A stretch of DNA of 32,786 bases, taken from an uncultured Clostridia bacterium (GTDB lineage: Bacteria > Bacillota > Clostridia > Oscillospirales > Acutalibacteraceae). Positions 7,446-23,732 of the stretch are shown piece by piece. Each line of letters begins with the position of its first letter. The first letter of the stretch is position 1. The position numbers were made by a program, and so were the translations under genes. The stretch is taken from assembly GCA_946406145.1 (NCBI GenBank), contig CAMJJL010000023.1, positions 1 to 32,786 on the forward strand. The letters run 5' to 3'. The notes beneath the pieces are model-generated. The model did not search any database and had not been told where the DNA came from. It saw only the letters and a program-made list of their open reading frames with translations.

Positions 7446-8390
7446 TTAGATTTCGTTTTCCGCCTCATACATTTTCTTGAGATCCTCCAGATCATACGGT
7501 GTTTGCTGATACAAATAATAGTTCAGCCAGTTCGAATACAGGAGGGACGCATGGGAGCGCCATGTCATCACGGGCTTGCGGTTGACGTTGTCATCAGGAA
7601 AGTAATTGTACGGCTTGCTGATCTTGATTCCCTTCTCCACATCGCGGTAATACTCCTTGGCGAGGGTATCATAATCATATTCGCAGTGACCGAGCAGATA
7701 GAACTCCCTGCCGTTTTTGGAGCAGATGATCGCAACGCCTGCCTTCTTGGAGGTAGCTAAGATCTCCAGCTCCGGTACCTTCTCAACATCCTCGGTACGG
7801 ATACCCGTATAGCGCGAGTGTGGGATCAGGAAATAGTCGTCAAAGCCGCGCATCAAAGGATGCTTGGGGTTGAGGATCATGTGATTATAGATGCCGAAGA
7901 GCTTCTGAGGCAGATCGACCTTGTCAATGCCGTACCGATAGTACAGCCCTGCCTGAGCGCCCCAACAGATAAACATCGTGGAATAAACATGCTTTTTTGC
8001 CCATTCAAAGACCTCGCACAGCTCATCCCAGTAGTCGACCTCCTCAAAGGGCATTTGCTCAACGGGAGCGCCGGTGACGATCATGCCGTCAAAGCGTTCC
8101 TCACGGATCTCATCGAGGGTCTTGTAGAACTTCATCAGGTGCTTTTCACTGGTGTTCTTCGATCGATGGCTCGCCATCTGCAGCAGTTCCACATCCACCT
8201 GCAAGGGTGAGTTACCGAGCAGACGCATGAGCTGGGTCTCGGTCGTGATCTTGGTGGGCATGAGGTTCAGGATGACGATTCTGAGCGGTCGGATATCCTG
8301 CGTCATCGCGCGATCTTCCTGCATGACAAAGATATTCTCGCTTTCGAGAATTTGCGTGGCAGGCAGATCATTGGGTATTTTGATCGGCAT
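7446..8390 (-). CDS. metA: Homoserine O-acetyltransferase (MetA family)
   Basis: A 314-residue MetA-type enzyme that activates homoserine for methionine synthesis. Catalytic Cys142 lies in [11 protein letters not shown]; the family His and Glu are in PHSRYT and [10 protein letters not shown]. Residue 111 is Glu ([17 protein letters not shown]). In MetA proteins Glu at this position goes with acetyl-CoA and Gly with succinyl-CoA, so I call it an O-acetyltransferase despite the common succinyltransferase label. The start [11 protein letters not shown] has an AAGGAG site upstream; the frame extends nine codons further without support. No SAM riboswitch or T-box is seen upstream: that gap is filled by repeat DNA up to proS. 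Confidence 0.94.
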
Positions 8391-8422
8391 ATTACCGCTC
8401 CTTTCCTTATCAATCAATAAAC

Positions 8423-14884: not shown

Positions 14885-17800
14885 ATGAAAAGAGTATTCA
14901 AAGCAATCAGTGTCTTATTGTGCATAGTCATGCTTTTGAGTGTATTCAGCATTATTCCGGTATCGGCGGCTACAGCTGGCGAGTACACATATGTGGTACT
15001 CAGCGACGGCACCGCTAAGATCACAAAAGCCACCGCGACCGGTGATGTTGTCATTCCATCCGCTCTCGACGGCTATACGATCACGGTGCTCGACAACCGA
15101 TCATTTTATAATCACAAGGATATAACCTCTGTAGTGATTCCCGACACGGTCACGACCATCGGAGAAAACGCGTTTATTAATTGCAGTGAACTTATCTCCG
15201 TCACAATCGGAAATTCTGTCACTTCGCTTGGAGACAAGTCTTTTTCCGGCTGCGGAAAGCTGACCTCCGTGACCATCCCCGATTCTGTCAAAACAATTGG
15301 GGATAATGCGTTCTATAATTGCACCGGCTTGACCTCTGTGACAATCGGTAAAACTGTCGAGACTATTGGAAACAGGGCGTTTTTAGGTTGCACCGGCCTC
15401 GTCACCGTGACTATCCCCGACTCTGTTATTATGATCGGTAATAGTTCATTCCAAAGTTGTACAGGCTTGACCTCCGTAACCATCCCTGATTCTGTTACGA
15501 CGATCGGTGCTTCCGCATTTAGCAAATGCAGCAGTTTGAGTTCTGTTACCATCCCCGACTCCGTCACAGATATTGGTAATTCTGCGTTTAGAGATTGCAG
15601 TGGGCTTACCTCTGTGAAGATCGGTAAAGCTGTCGAGACGATTGGCGAAGATGCCTTCTTGTGTTGCAGCAGCTTAACCGCCGTGACAATTTCCAACTCA
15701 GTTACAACTATTGGAAACTATGCGTTTTCGAGATGCAGTAGCTTAACCACCGTGACCATTCCTAAATCGGTTACTACTCTCGGGAATGGGGTGTTCAGCG
15801 ATTGCATCGGTCTAAATGCTGTTATGATCTCAGACATCGGCGCATGGTGCGCGGTCAGTTTTGTGGGCACTTCCAGTAACCCTCTTTATTATGCGCATAA
15901 TCTTTACTTGAACGGTGAGCTTGTAACAGAGTTGACCATTCCTGATTCGGTCAAGACAATCGGGAATAATGCGTTTTGTTATTGTACCGGATTGACCTCC
16001 GTAACCATCCCTGATTCTGTTACGACGATCGGTGCTTCTGCATTTAGCGAATGTAGCGGTTTGACCTCTGTGACCATCCCCGACTCTGTCACAAGTATCG
16101 GTGCTTCTGCATTTAGCGAATGTAGCGGTTTGACCTCTGTGACCATCCCCGACTCTGTCACAAGTATCGGTAACTATGCGTTTTATAATTGCAGCAGTCT
16201 AACCTCCGTGACTATTCCCGACTCTGTCACAAGTATCGGTAACTATGCGTTTTATAATTGCAGCAGTCTAACCTCCGTGACTATTTTCAACTCTATTACA
16301 ACGATCGGTGAATATACGTTTTATCATTGCGACAGCCTGATCGATGTTTATTTTGAAGGTTCACAGGAAGAGTGGAAAAAGGTTAATGTCAAAACCGGTA
16401 ATACGGCATTGAAAAACGCAACTATCCATTTCAGCGTAGGTCCTACCAATGGCACAGATGAAGAAGGAGGCTTCGAATACTATTGGGATTCTATATCCGG
16501 TACAGCAATGATCCTTAAATATACCGGTTCTGATACCGACGTGACAATTCCGTCAACGCTGAATGGATATACAGTCACAGCCATCGGATCTACAGCGTTT
16601 TGTAATAACAAAACGCTTGAATCGGTAACGTTCCCGGATAGTGTAGAAACCATTGCGGACGGATATGTTACGACTCATATTCTCTTTAGAGAATTTGAGA
16701 AAGATGATGAACGTCGTTTCGTAAATTATGTTCCTTATGGGGCTTCTGGTGAGAGTTTCGGCGCATTTAGCGATTGTGAAAACTTAAAAAGCGTTGATCT
16801 CGGACTCGGTATCAAAACGATCGGATCGTATGCATTTCATGGATGTGCTGGTTTGGAATCCGTCACCTTTCCGGAAAGTCTGATATCGATCGAAAAATGT
16901 GCATTTGAGTTTTGTGACTCCATACAAAGCGTTACCATACCCCGAAACGTAACAACAATCGGAGATGGTTCATTTTTAGGCTGCGACTCCTTACAAAAGG
17001 TTGAAATACTTGGCGACGCATCGATTGGTACCTATTGTTATAGTAATACAGAAGCAACCACTGTTAGCATCATTTGGCAGGGTAGCGGATACGATTATAC
17101 AGGGGCGGAAAATCCGATGGATGAAGAATATTATAGCAATTACACACTGCAAGAAGCGACAATTAGGGAAGGAGCATTTGCATATTGCGTTAACTTAACA
17201 GAGGTACATTTAGGAGATAGTGTTACTTCAATCGGATATGCTACTTTCCAATCTTGTGCAAATCTCAAAAGTATTATCATTCCCGATTCTGTCACAAGTA
17301 TCGGCGGCTCTGCTTTTGCGTATTGCGATTCTCTCGAATCTATCAATCTATCAGGCGAGTCTTTAGAAAGATATGGCGAGAATGCACTTTATCAATGTAA
17401 TAGTTTGATCACCGCTTATATCAATATACCGGTCATTGATGACTATATGTTCATGGATTGCAAATCCTTGAAGGAAGTGACCCTCGGAAATAATGTTGAG
17501 TGGGTCGGCGAAAAAGCGTTCCACGGATGTATCAATATGAAGAGAATCACCATCCCAAAATCTGTCAAGCATATCGGCGATCGGGCGTTCGGCTTCTATT
17601 ATGACGTTATCGGCGCTCAATATCACTCAGCGCCGTATGATAACTATTTTACGATCCAAGGCTATAAAAACACTGTGGCTGAACTGTACGCCAAAGAGAA
17701 TGGATTTATCTTTAAAGCTCTCGATACAGTATCCAAGCCCGGCGACGCGGACGGTGACGGTCAGATCACGGTGAAGGACGTCACCGAGGTTCAGTTTTAT

Positions 17801-17941
17801 CTTTCGAACACGACAACCCAAGCGGATGAAGAAACGCTGATGTATGCCGACATCGATAAAAACGGTCGTCTTGAGGTCATCGACACGACATGGCTCCAGC
17901 GCCATCTGGCAGGCATGGAGATCCCCTATACGATTGGATAA
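14885..17941 (+). CDS. Secreted BspA-type leucine-rich-repeat protein with type I dockerin
   Basis: A 1018-residue exported protein. It has a signal peptide (basic MKRVFK, hydrophobic core AISVLLCIVMLLSVFS, cleavage near VSAATA). Two long runs of 23-residue BspA-like LRR_5 repeats follow, with consensus LTSVTIPDSVTTIGxxAFxxCSG, separated by a repeat-poor stretch (about 500-560). At about residue 315 is the AWCAVSFVGTSSNPLYYAHNLYLNGELV insert often seen in these proteins. Residues from about 950 form a type I dockerin: DADGDGQITVKDV and ADIDKNGRLEVID are its two calcium loops. Dockerins bind cohesins, so it is probably displayed on a scaffoldin or cell-surface cohesin. GGAGG precedes the ATG. 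Target of the LRR region unknown. Confidence 0.93.
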   Translation: MKRVFKAISVLLCIVMLLSVFSIIPVSAATAGEYTYVVLSDGTAKITKATATGDVVIPSALDGYTITVLDNRSFYNHKDITSVVIPDTVTTIGENAFINCSELISVTIGNSVTSLGDKSFSGCGKLTSVTIPDSVKTIGDNAFYNCTGLTSVTIGKTVETIGNRAFLGCTGLVTVTIPDSVIMIGNSSFQSCTGLTSVTIPDSVTTIGASAFSKCSSLSSVTIPDSVTDIGNSAFRDCSGLTSVKIGKAVETIGEDAFLCCSSLTAVTISNSVTTIGNYAFSRCSSLTTVTIPKSVTTLGNGVFSDCIGLNAVMISDIGAWCAVSFVGTSSNPLYYAHNLYLNGELVTELTIPDSVKTIGNNAFCYCTGLTSVTIPDSVTTIGASAFSECSGLTSVTIPDSVTSIGASAFSECSGLTSVTIPDSVTSIGNYAFYNCSSLTSVTIPDSVTSIGNYAFYNCSSLTSVTIFNSITTIGEYTFYHCDSLIDVYFEGSQEEWKKVNVKTGNTALKNATIHFSVGPTNGTDEEGGFEYYWDSISGTAMILKYTGSDTDVTIPSTLNGYTVTAIGSTAFCNNKTLESVTFPDSVETIADGYVTTHILFREFEKDDERRFVNYVPYGASGESFGAFSDCENLKSVDLGLGIKTIGSYAFHGCAGLESVTFPESLISIEKCAFEFCDSIQSVTIPRNVTTIGDGSFLGCDSLQKVEILGDASIGTYCYSNTEATTVSIIWQGSGYDYTGAENPMDEEYYSNYTLQEATIREGAFAYCVNLTEVHLGDSVTSIGYATFQSCANLKSIIIPDSVTSIGGSAFAYCDSLESINLSGESLERYGENALYQCNSLITAYINIPVIDDYMFMDCKSLKEVTLGNNVEWVGEKAFHGCINMKRITIPKSVKHIGDRAFGFYYDVIGAQYHSAPYDNYFTIQGYKNTVAELYAKENGFIFKALDTVSKPGDADGDGQITVKDVTEVQFYLSNTTTQADEETLMYADIDKNGRLEVIDTTWLQRHLAGMEIPYTIG
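16020..16280 (+). repeat. Nearly perfect 69-bp tandem repeats inside the LRR gene
   Basis: The string GGTGCTTCTGCATTTAGCGA recurs at 16031 and 16100; GACTCTGTCACAAGTATCGG at 16082, 16151 and 16220; TAACTATGCGTTTTATAATT at 16171 and 16240. All offsets are exactly 69 bp, one LRR unit of 23 codons. The near identity at DNA level points to recent unit duplication. Confidence 0.9.
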
Positions 17942-22004: not shown

Positions 22005-22016
22005 ACAAATCAATAA

Positions 22017-22128
22017 CCTATAGAGAGTGCGCGAGGGACAAGCCCGTTGACCGCACACCAACCTGCCGGATCTCACGCCGGTAAGGTGGTAATGCTTGAC
22101 CGATAGGTTCCGTCGCGTCTCTCATAGG
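22017..22128 (+). ncRNA. SAM-I-superfamily-like riboswitch (SAM-I/IV type)
   Basis: A long P1 brings together CCTATAGAGAGTGCGCGA (5') and TCGCGTCTCTCATAGG (3'). Inside it the order and spacing of conserved blocks follow the SAM-I core: GAGGGACAAGCCCGTTGACC (SAM-I: GAGGGAC..GCCC..UGA), CACCAACC (SAM-I: GGCAACC), a GCCGG/CCGGT hairpin, then TAAGGTGGTAA (SAM-I: AAGGUGC.AA). The GCAACC/GGUGC pair of SAM-I appears here as CCAACC/GGTGG, a compensated change that supports the fold. The wording AAGCCC and TGACCGATAGG resembles the SAM-I/IV variant. It ends 9 nt before an AAGGAGG, so translational control is possible. No terminator follows. Confidence 0.68.
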
Positions 22129-22137
22129 AAATATAAT

Positions 22138-22154
22138 AAGGAGGCGCGAATACG
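22138..22154 (+). promoter_or_regulatory. Ribosome binding site facing an ACG at the start position
   Basis: AAGGAGG (22138-22144) is followed at the ideal 7-nt spacing by ACG (22152-22154), in frame with the well-formed protein ending at 22448. No ATG, GTG or TTG occurs in this frame between the RBS and TTG at 22203. Either translation starts at ACG, or an original ATG has mutated. Confidence 0.6.
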
Positions 22155-22448
22155 CGTACAATCAGCAGTTTACTAAAATACGAAGGAAGAGTTTATATCT
22201 ACTTGAACAGTCCGGCGATCAGCCGACAATTCCGAGTAGATGCCGCGAGAGAAGGTTTCACCTTGTCCGGTAACGGTGAGAGCGATATCTACGCGCTTAA
22301 CCACAACAAGACGATGAACACCGTCGGCTTCGTAGGACATGTTCTCTTCCACAACACCAGCCAAAATCTCGCGGACGGTACACCGGTGATCCGCGTGGAT
22401 TATGAAAAGTATATCGCCGGTGCCGATGATTACCATTACAAAAAATAG
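22152..22448 (+). CDS. Small protein of unknown function (98 aa from ACG, 81 aa from TTG)
   Basis: Reading from ACG: TRTISSLLKYEGRVYIYLNS, then PAISRQFRVDAAREGFTLSG, ending IRVDYEKYIAGADDYHYKK. The GRVYIYLNS segment, upstream of the first standard start (TTG, 22203), looks like real protein (a beta strand followed by an amphipathic helix), so the gene very likely extends to 22152. The pattern EGRVYIY..SxxISxxFxxDAxxEGFTL..GVGHVLFH resembles small proteins often found in Oscillospiraceae accessory regions; no function is known to me. It is the first gene after the SAM-like RNA and the head of a closely spaced run of four genes. Confidence 0.65.
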   Translation, partial: TRTISSLLKYEGRVYIYLNSPAISRQFRVDAAREGFTLSGNGESDIYALNHNKTMNTVGFVGHVLFHNTSQNLADGTPVIRVDYEKYIAGADDYHYKK

Positions 22449-22460
22449 GAGGGATTTTCT

Positions 22461-22748
22461 ATGGTAAAAGTATCTATTGATTTTAGAGTGACATTTCCAC
22501 CGGAGGAGGACATCCATGCAGAGGTGCCACGTTTCTACAAGTATTTCTCTGATCACGACGTCACCGTTCTCGACGAACGCTATGTCGGGCGTAACATAAT
22601 CTTTTCGGTGGAATGTAATAATCATCTCATCAATGCTCTGTCAGATCTCGTTGATAATATGATGACAGATACCGAGACGCTTGAGATGATTGTTGATCTG
22701 AAGCCGGAGGCTACCAAGGTACCTGTTCTCGGTACCGTGACCACATAA
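22461..22748 (+). CDS. Small acidic protein of unknown function (95 aa)
   Basis: Begins MVKVSIDFRVTFPPEEDIHAEVPRFYKYFSDHDVTVLDERYVG and ends LKPEATKVPVLGTVTT. Soluble, no signal peptide or membrane helix. Predicted alternation of strands and helices (VKVSIDFRVTF, HAEVPRFYKYFSDHD, IIFSVECNN, INALSDLVDNMM) suggests a small ferredoxin-like fold, an inference from pattern only. AGGAGGG lies upstream of the ATG. It starts 12 nt after the previous gene and ends 12 nt before the next, so it is cotranscribed with them. Confidence 0.75.
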   Translation: MVKVSIDFRVTFPPEEDIHAEVPRFYKYFSDHDVTVLDERYVGRNIIFSVECNNHLINALSDLVDNMMTDTETLEMIVDLKPEATKVPVLGTVTT

Positions 22749-22760
22749 ATGGAGGGCGCT

Positions 22761-23168
22761 ATGGAAACCATTATGAAGCCGGACATCGATGCGATCCGGC
22801 CCGATGATATCTTGTTCTTCCTCTTTGCCGAAGGAGGCGCCATGGGGAGCCCGGGCAGTATCGAGTTCGTGGTAAAATCCGATACCGGCATTATCCGCAA
22901 CATTTCATATTATCTGCCATTTCTGCCGAATCATATTACTAATGATGATATCGTCAGGCTGTTCCCTCCAATGGAGAATATCCGGCTTGAGATGTTCGGA
23001 GGCTGTACCGGCTTACCGGAAACTTGGCGATATATCAGCCTCGGTGCCGGTAATCACCTGTTTGTAAGAACAGAATACTATGATACTTTTTCACAACACA
23101 TGAAAGAAAAGTCTCCGTCAGAGATACACGGTTGTTGGTATGAAACTGCCGTAACAATCCTTTCATAA
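22761..23168 (+). CDS. Hypothetical protein (135 aa)
   Basis: Begins METIMKPDIDAIRPDDILFFLFAEGGAMGSPGSIEFVVKSDTG. Soluble, with a GSPG turn and a C-terminal CWYETAVTIL segment. I chose the ATG at 22761: GGAGG (22751-22755) precedes it, while the alternative ATG at 22749 overlaps that same site. It continues the small-gene run with 12 nt spacing. Not recognised; no catalytic motif seen. Confidence 0.72.
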   Translation: METIMKPDIDAIRPDDILFFLFAEGGAMGSPGSIEFVVKSDTGIIRNISYYLPFLPNHITNDDIVRLFPPMENIRLEMFGGCTGLPETWRYISLGAGNHLFVRTEYYDTFSQHMKEKSPSEIHGCWYETAVTILS

Positions 23169-23189: not shown

Positions 23190-23708
23190 ATGTTATTTGA
23201 TGACGACGATTTCGTTGACGAGTATCTCGAGTATAAAATCTTTGAAAAAAGTCTGAAGGAATCTGAGGCAAAAAGAAAAGCACGGCAAGGCAAGCCGACA
23301 TCGCCGCCTCCGATGAGGATGACGAAGAAGTCCTCGGACTTAGGCTGTGGTGGCTGGATCGCGCTGATTTGTGTCGTGATTGCGGCTATATCTATCTTCG
23401 GCTCATGTGAGAACAGGCATAAGAGCTCTTACAACGGCACCTCTCGCAGCAGTTACAGTTCATCAAGCCGCAGTTATTCATCCGGCTACAACTCATCATC
23501 CAACAGTAAAGCATATTCAAGCACTAAACCTTCCTCGGGAAGTACCGTCAAGTCTTACTCGGGGAACAGCAGCAAATCTAAGAGCACTTCCGACCCTTAT
23601 GATGCTAAGTCCTATGCTCATCCGGAGGATCTGTATTACGATTATCCCGATGATTTCTGGGATTATGAGGATGCGGAGGATTATTGGGAGGAGCATCAAG
23701 ATAATTGA
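23190..23708 (+). CDS. Single-pass membrane protein with serine-rich extracellular region
   Basis: A 172-residue protein. It starts with an acidic, then basic cytoplasmic segment (FDDDDFVDEYLEYKIFEKSL and KESEAKRKARQGK), has one hydrophobic segment (GGWIALICVVIAAISIFGSC, about residues 53-72), a long Ser/Tyr/Lys-rich low-complexity region (SSYSSSSRSYSSGYNSSSNS), and an acidic aromatic end (YYDYPDDFWDYEDAEDYWEE). The SIFGSC placement is not a lipobox at the N-terminus. AAGGAGG precedes the ATG. It is last of the run behind the SAM-like RNA; a new promoter for the next gene overlaps its final codons. Function unknown. Confidence 0.75.
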   Translation: MLFDDDDFVDEYLEYKIFEKSLKESEAKRKARQGKPTSPPPMRMTKKSSDLGCGGWIALICVVIAAISIFGSCENRHKSSYNGTSRSSYSSSSRSYSSGYNSSSNSKAYSSTKPSSGSTVKSYSGNSSKSKSTSDPYDAKSYAHPEDLYYDYPDDFWDYEDAEDYWEEHQDN

Positions 23709-23732
23709 CAGTAGCCAAAACCCTGCTATAAT
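23705..23732 (+). promoter_or_regulatory. Sigma-A promoter of the Nudix-yaaA group
   Basis: TTGACA (23705-23710), 16-nt spacer, TATAAT (23727-23732): both hexamers match consensus exactly. The -35 overlaps the stop codon of the preceding gene. Confidence 0.82.

What the first reader, a model, noticed from the sequence alone, without database searches (positions are those of the whole stretch)
22017..22448. SAM-I-like riboswitch in front of a gene with no link to methionine
Seen: a long P1, GAGGGAC..GCCC..TGA, CACCAACC, a GC hairpin and TAAGGTGGTAA in SAM-I order, with a compensated change of the GCAACC/GGUGC pair to CCAACC/GGTGG. Known: SAM-I and SAM-I/IV riboswitches normally precede methionine, cysteine or SAM genes. 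Inferred: this copy controls a run of small unknown proteins, while metA in the same window has no riboswitch. That suggests a SAM-responsive, or altered-ligand, accessory module.
Basis: partly seen in the sequence, partly recalled or inferred. Interest (0 to 1): 0.75.

Follow-up and report, generated by a model that had tools for sequence, protein, structure and literature searches.

The report
SAM-controlled small gene on mobile elements
A genuine RNA switch of the kind that senses the methyl donor SAM sits in front of a small protein of unknown function, and the same switch-plus-gene pair recurs in many gut and rumen bacteria and in phages, which suggests that mobile DNA reads the host's SAM level to decide when to make this protein.

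Summary
Window 22015-22109 is a SAM-I (S-box) aptamer, 57.2 bits against a gathering score (GA) of 44.4, the window's only SAM hit. It lies 42 nt before a 97-98 aa orphan protein (22152-22448). The pairing is conserved: in the genus (Ruminococcus, R. bromii group) 42 of 48 family members have a SAM riboswitch at GA directly upstream; so do 8 of 9 genomes elsewhere in the sampled order, 23 of 29 further named loci including Lachnospiraceae and 12 of 12 phage loci scanned. These aptamers form a subtype: no P4 helix, a covarying CAAGC/GCUUG pseudoknot, a conserved SAM pocket. The genome's other SAM riboswitch precedes metK. In the window, P1 formation is predicted to hide the ribosome-binding site (openness 0.02 with P1, 0.69 without), so SAM should switch the gene OFF; 59 of 77 leaders also hold a terminator-like hairpin. 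The protein has no usable Pfam, NCBIfam or PADLOC match. An altered ligand is not supported. A first sign of a phage SAM-supply link (metK in 11 of 20 records) did not survive a control. The protein's function remains unknown.

The parts
22015..22109 (+). SAM-I (S-box) riboswitch aptamer, P4-less subtype
   Evidence: RF00162 57.2 bits, gathering 44.4; covariation in 55 relatives; P4 spacer test
22015..22021 (+). P1, 5' strand (pairs with 22103-22109; in the predicted SAM-free fold its inner part pairs downstream)
22103..22109 (+). P1, 3' strand
22039..22042 (+). pseudoknot strand in the P2 loop (CAAG), pairs with 22095-22098
   Evidence: pairs kept in 55 rows with two-sided changes at two of four pairs
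22095..22098 (+). pseudoknot strand in J3/4 (CUUG)
22057..22090 (+).
22112..22128 (+). switching strand: pairs with the aptamer's 5' side in the predicted SAM-free fold
   Evidence: free and P1-blocked folds
22113..22122 (+). anti-ribosome-binding-site strand, pairs with 22140-22149 when P1 is enforced
22140..22144 (+). ribosome-binding site GGAGG
   Evidence: sequence; predicted unpaired 0.02 with P1 enforced, 0.69 with P1 3' strand blocked
22152..22448 (+). orphan protein of the riboswitch-linked family (97-98 aa); codon at the expected start is ACG
   Evidence: alignment to relatives; purifying selection in the family
22461..22748 (+). 95 aa ORF of unknown function, possibly cotranscribed
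   Evidence: no Pfam match
22761..23168 (+). 135 aa ORF of unknown function, possibly cotranscribed
   Evidence: no Pfam match
23190..23708 (+). 172 aa Ser-rich protein with a hydrophobic stretch, possibly the last gene of the unit; a consensus promoter-like site follows at 23705-23732
   Evidence: similar proteins near the gene in 15 of 83 loci

Best explanation
A P4-less subtype of the SAM-I riboswitch controls a small orphan protein. In the window it acts on translation: when SAM binds, P1 forms, strand 22113-22122 is left free and pairs with the ribosome-binding site (22140-22149), and the gene is OFF; when SAM is scarce, the aptamer's 5' side pairs with 22112-22128, the ribosome-binding site opens and the gene is ON. 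In most relatives a terminator-like hairpin suggests the usual transcriptional OFF layer. Riboswitch and gene travel together as a cassette on phages and other mobile elements of gut and rumen Clostridia, so the element makes the protein when the host's SAM pool is low. Shown by computation: the aptamer, its conserved pairing with the gene, the conserved pocket, the predicted two-state fold, purifying selection, residence in phages. Inferred: that the ligand is SAM, the direction of the switch in cells, that the window's own copy is mobile, and that the protein acts in SAM shortage. The protein's activity is not known.
For: RF00162 over threshold. Of 56 SAM hits of the genus that I fetched outside the strongest class (window included), 4 end at a contig edge; of the other 52, 43 precede the family gene. 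Of 48 family members in 40 of 161 genus genomes, 42 have the riboswitch at the gathering score directly upstream. 8 of 9 genomes elsewhere in the sampled order, 23 of 29 further named loci and 12 of 12 phage loci scanned also have it. Starting from a riboswitch pattern in viral contigs, 11 of 15 have the gene behind it. Pocket segments invariant or nearly so in 55 aptamers; covariation. Window ribosome-binding site 0.02 open with P1 enforced, 0.69 with the P1 3' strand blocked. 59 of 77 leaders have a terminator-like hairpin. Median dN/dS 0.21 in 122 pairs, none above 1. Resolvase, relaxase and MobC among neighbours; TnpV and a ParB-like gene upstream in the window.
Against: No ligand binding or expression data. 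Translational switching is clear in few relatives: site opening changes by more than 0.2 in the expected sense in 16 of 77 leaders, in the opposite sense in 2, little in the rest. A simple complementarity test between the aptamer's 5' end and the pre-start region reached p<=0.02 in 26 of 77 leaders and not in the window. Four of 48 genus members and one named locus (L125) lack the riboswitch altogether. The window gene has ACG at its expected start. No att site or complete element was delimited around the window's copy, and no plasmid carries the gene.
Confidence: 0.8

Rival explanations
1. The aptamer is a variant that senses another ligand (for example SAH or another adenosyl compound), and the gene belongs to that ligand's biology.
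For: The target gene has no methionine link, the subtype differs from the host's metK riboswitch in pseudoknot and P4, and one P3 pair is swapped in 19 of 55 relatives.
Against: The segments that line the SAM pocket do not vary or hardly vary in 55 aptamers, the swapped pair is compensated, and RF00162 is the best model of its clan (only the best of a clan is printed).
Confidence: 0.07
2. The cassette belongs to a phage SAM and DNA-methylation module: the protein assists or replaces methylation-linked functions of phages that carry their own SAM synthetase and DNA methylases.
For: In several phages the gene lies next to a C5 DNA methylase, then a ParB_N/N6_N4 methylase, in three of them also S-adenosylmethionine synthetase in the locus; PF00438 occurs in 11 of 20 viral records with the cassette or its riboswitch, against 133 of 50,697 GenBank phage records found with one query.
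Against: Control: of 80 loci chosen by the terminase of one such phage, 25 carry the synthetase (24 of the 45 of 12 kb or more) and none carries the family gene, so the synthetase goes with the lineage, not with the cassette. The window's own genome has no PF00145 match.
Confidence: 0.15
3. The window's copy is a decaying remnant: the family is functional elsewhere, but here the gene is hardly translated and the riboswitch regulates little.
For: ACG at the expected start, the only one of 83 unique leaders. The second copy in the same genome (contig C86, L095) has its aptamer interrupted by about 150 nt between inverted repeats.
Against: The frame is open to its stop; relatives are up to 96% identical over the full length; the two-state leader is intact.
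Confidence: 0.25

Closest known systems
SAM-I riboswitch (S-box), Rfam RF00162
   Same: Score over the gathering threshold, P1-P2-P3 core, divided P2, loop-J3/4 pseudoknot, conserved pocket, P1-driven OFF logic with terminators in many relatives.
   Different: No P4 helix (spacer 10-11 nt against 20-23 nt in the metK class); target is an orphan gene on mobile elements, not a methionine or SAM gene. Surveys tie SAM riboswitches to methionine and cysteine genes (PMC3766115, passages read).
SAM-IV riboswitch (RF00634)
   Same: Also lacks P4 and has divided P2 and PK-1 (PMC6890682, passages read).
   Different: SAM-IV has P5 and a second pseudoknot using the P3 loop; many P3 loops here are only about 3-5 nt. 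RF00162 is the best clan match.
SAM-I/IV riboswitch (RF01725; accession recalled)
   Same: Shares the SAM-binding core (PMC6890682, passages).
   Different: SAM-I/IV has undivided P2, lacks PK-1 and has P4 (same passages); here P2 is divided, PK-1 covaries and P4 is absent.
Glutamine riboswitches of marine phages (PMC9004378, passages read)
   Same: A metabolite riboswitch carried by phages; the authors call riboswitches rare in phages.
   Different: Other ligand and hosts; there linked to a tmRNA gene.

Membership tests
SAM-I riboswitch (RF00162) | Covariance-model score over the curated threshold | tested here: met
   57.2 bits against 44.4
SAM-I riboswitch (RF00162) | P1, P2a/P2b, P3 and the P2-loop to J3/4 pseudoknot | tested here: met
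   94.5% of cells paired, two-sided changes at 12 of 28 pairs, in P1, P2, P3 and the pseudoknot
SAM-I riboswitch (RF00162) | SAM-pocket nucleotides | tested here: met
   Segments corresponding to the pocket residues listed in PMC6890682 are invariant or nearly so in 55 rows; the correspondence of positions is mine
SAM-I riboswitch (RF00162) | P4 helix of canonical SAM-I (peripheral; the Rfam model tolerates its absence) | tested here: not met
   J3/4 to P1 spacer 10-11 nt in 62 of 69 aptamers (7 unresolved) against 20-23 nt in 31 of 31 of the metK class. Hence filed as a P4-less variant, not as canonical SAM-I
SAM-I riboswitch (RF00162) | Selective SAM binding | not testable with these tools
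   Needs in-line probing or calorimetry
SAM-I riboswitch (RF00162) | Control of methionine, cysteine or SAM genes (typical, not structural) | tested here: not met
   Target has no usable Pfam or NCBIfam match; the genome's other copy precedes metK
SAM-IV riboswitch | P5 and second pseudoknot with the P3 loop | tested here: inconclusive
   Judged by eye from P3 loops of about 3-5 nt in many rows; no SAM-IV model was run separately, only best-of-clan
SAM-I/IV riboswitch | Undivided P2 and no PK-1 | tested here: not met
   Divided P2 and PK-1 kept in 55 aptamers
Any named protein family for the product | Match to a curated profile or a solved structure | tested here: inconclusive

The most novel reading that the evidence does not exclude
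Phages and other mobile elements of gut Clostridia carry a dedicated SAM-gated cassette: a mobile subtype of the SAM-I riboswitch that turns on small effector proteins (this family, a second 138-140 aa family, perhaps an 11-residue peptide) when the host runs short of SAM, the state in which DNA methylation, and with it restriction-modification and phage self-marking, falters. The protein would act on that state, for example as a guard against restriction or as a modulator of methylation.
Probability: 0.2. Interest if true: 0.85.

Novelty: new variant of a known kind. Interest (0 to 1): 0.63.

Why it matters
SAM-I is among the best-studied riboswitches and is taken to serve the host's methionine and SAM genes. 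Here one subtype is tied, in Oscillospirales-type and Lachnospiraceae genomes and in several phage types, to an orphan gene on mobile DNA. That gives a handle on a large unnamed protein family (677 clusters at E 1e-3): it should be made when SAM is low. It would also add SAM to the metabolites that phages appear to sense with riboswitches, in abundant gut bacteria of the R. bromii group.

Tried and rejected
Altered ligand: not kept as the main reading because the pocket is conserved.

Phage SAM and DNA-methylation module: first looked strong. The gene lies beside a C5 DNA methylase and a ParB_N/N6_N4 methylase, in some loci with S-adenosylmethionine synthetase, and the synthetase occurs in 11 of 20 viral records that hold the gene or its riboswitch subtype (one of the 20, L205, has the riboswitch without the gene), against 133 of 50,697 GenBank phage records found by one tblastn query.

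C5 methylases in 24 of 40 genus genomes with the gene were listed but not tested for closeness; the window's own genome has none.

A simple complementarity test between the aptamer's 5' end and the pre-start region reached p<=0.02 in 26 of 77 leaders and not in the window; the window's alternative helix appears in full folding.

Literature: the PMC searches that ran listed no paper whose title or shown abstract start deals with SAM riboswitches on phages or with this protein family; I saw listings, plus passages of PMC9004378, PMC3766115, PMC6890682 and PMC2258182. Most subscription papers are not held, so this is not proof of absence from print.

Full report
What is there. The window (Ruminococcus, R. 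bromii group, judged from named records that hold the same contigs as other genomes of its genus) has one SAM riboswitch at the gathering score, 22015-22109 on the plus strand, 57.2 bits against 44.4. The genome has two: this one and a 76.5-bit copy before metK. metA (7446-8417 minus) has none.

The gene behind it. The conserved product is 97-98 aa, 22152-22448. The window reads ACG at the expected start, 42 nt after the aptamer and behind a GGAGG; of 83 unique family leaders 77 were assigned ATG, the window alone ACG, and 5 starts were not resolved or not ATG in my script. Close relatives known only as proteins begin with M. The protein has no usable Pfam, NCBIfam or PADLOC match. A profile search found 677 related clusters; the 120 listed show no Pfam domain. 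The predicted structure is confident (pLDDT 89.6, pTM 0.81), a small alpha/beta protein without a clear solved relative in what could be searched. Coding sequences are under purifying selection: median dN/dS 0.21 over 122 pairs, none above 1.

The pairing is conserved. In 161 genomes of the genus 138 have a SAM riboswitch over the cut-off. Of 31 read from the strongest class (the 30 best and the genome's own), 29 have metK within 600 nt. I fetched 56 others, window included: 4 end at a contig edge; of the remaining 52, 43 precede the family gene, 3 metK, 3 an 11-codon frame, 1 another orphan, and 2 that lie below the gathering score precede nothing recognised. In reverse, 48 family members occur in 40 of 161 genomes: 42 have the riboswitch over the gathering score directly upstream, one at 39.7 bits, one (own genome, contig C86) has an aptamer interrupted by about 150 nt between inverted repeats that Rfam does not report, seen by eye, and 4 have none found (G064, G125, G159, G180). 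In 394 sampled genomes of the order, 9 outside the genus carry the gene: 8 with the riboswitch over threshold, one at 30.1 bits. In 398 sampled genomes of the phylum only one besides the window's own has it. Of the six without, two isolates (Oliverpabstia L135, Merdimonas L158) keep only what looks like 3' remnants, two (L166, L175) lack the N-terminal part of the gene, L173 is cut by the contig start and L125 simply lacks it.

Mobile DNA. Ruminococcus phage NatCom_28274 carries the gene, as do 14 IMG/VR contigs, at least one of them from an isolate genome. All 12 phage loci scanned, of 15, have the riboswitch directly upstream. Starting from a riboswitch pattern alone, 15 viral contigs were found and 11 have the gene behind it. 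Bacterial loci have resolvase (8 of 83), relaxase and MobC (3 of 83 each) and HTH_17 (4 of 83) clusters nearby (Pfam on one representative each). The window has TnpV and a ParB-like gene upstream, but its element was not delimited. No PLSDB plasmid has the gene.

The aptamer. Pocket segments are invariant or nearly so. The subtype lacks P4: the J3/4 to P1 spacer is 10-11 nt in 62 of 69 aptamers of up to 100 nt (7 unresolved) against 20-23 nt in 31 of 31 metK-class aptamers. Thirteen longer hits were not in that set; 12 of the 13 show the short GCUU..GAU form in the printed sequence, and the model seems to have run on to a terminator arm (my reading).

How it works. Folding 22015-22165 freely gives a helix between the aptamer's 5' side and 22112-22128 with the ribosome-binding site mostly open (0.71). 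Enforcing P1 frees 22113-22122, which pairs with 22140-22149 and closes the site (0.02); blocking the P1 3' strand leaves it open (0.69). The 166-nt leader folds better than 200 of 200 shuffles (z -4.3). This predicts SAM-OFF control of translation. Among 77 unique leaders (6 of 83 dropped for unclear or distant starts), 59 have a terminator-like hairpin by a simple rule. Site opening differs by more than 0.2 in the expected sense in 16 and in the opposite sense in 2; mean openness is 0.13 with P1 and 0.23 without. OFF control is the likely common theme, with termination as the main layer elsewhere and translation in the window.

What the protein does. Unknown. Phage neighbours suggested DNA methylation and SAM supply, but a control within one phage lineage found the SAM synthetase equally common without the gene (24 of 45 long loci), so I do not use it as support. 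What remains is inference from regulation: the protein should be made when SAM is low.

Verdict. A real and conserved SAM-I variant on a mobile orphan gene, a new variant of a known kind. Ligand and protein function await the bench.

Noticed in passing
L057 6487-6690, L063 5592-5800, L064 (minus strand, RS 2550-2638), L138 6485-6690, L140 6443-6640, L149 3340-3540: A second SAM riboswitch about 1.5-2.8 kb after the family gene, followed by a terminator-like hairpin and a conserved 11-codon frame MxxxKRxYxPP-stop with mostly synonymous variation in its second half: a possible SAM-controlled micro-ORF.
   Followed up: partly
L071 3323-3916 and L194 8349-8943: The same riboswitch subtype precedes another orphan family of 138-140 aa (32% identity over 93 aa); L198 has a third, 149-150 aa product.
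   Followed up: partly
L095 70-320 (contig C86 of the window's genome): A second family gene in the same genome whose aptamer is interrupted by about 150 nt between inverted repeats GCCCTGTGAT/ATCACAGGGC in the P2 loop.
   Followed up: partly
L154 3644-4267: The family domain fused behind an N-terminal region of about 115 aa without a Pfam match, under the same riboswitch.
   Followed up: no
L110 and L111: Two genus members whose gene follows an upstream gene directly, without any riboswitch; in L110 the expected start codon is not a standard one.
   Followed up: no
L185 9818-10600 and L197 1336-2118: Phage proteins of 260 aa that match only the N-terminal domain of S-adenosylmethionine synthetase.
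   Followed up: no
window 14885-17941: A 1018 aa leucine-rich-repeat protein with a dockerin domain.
   Followed up: no
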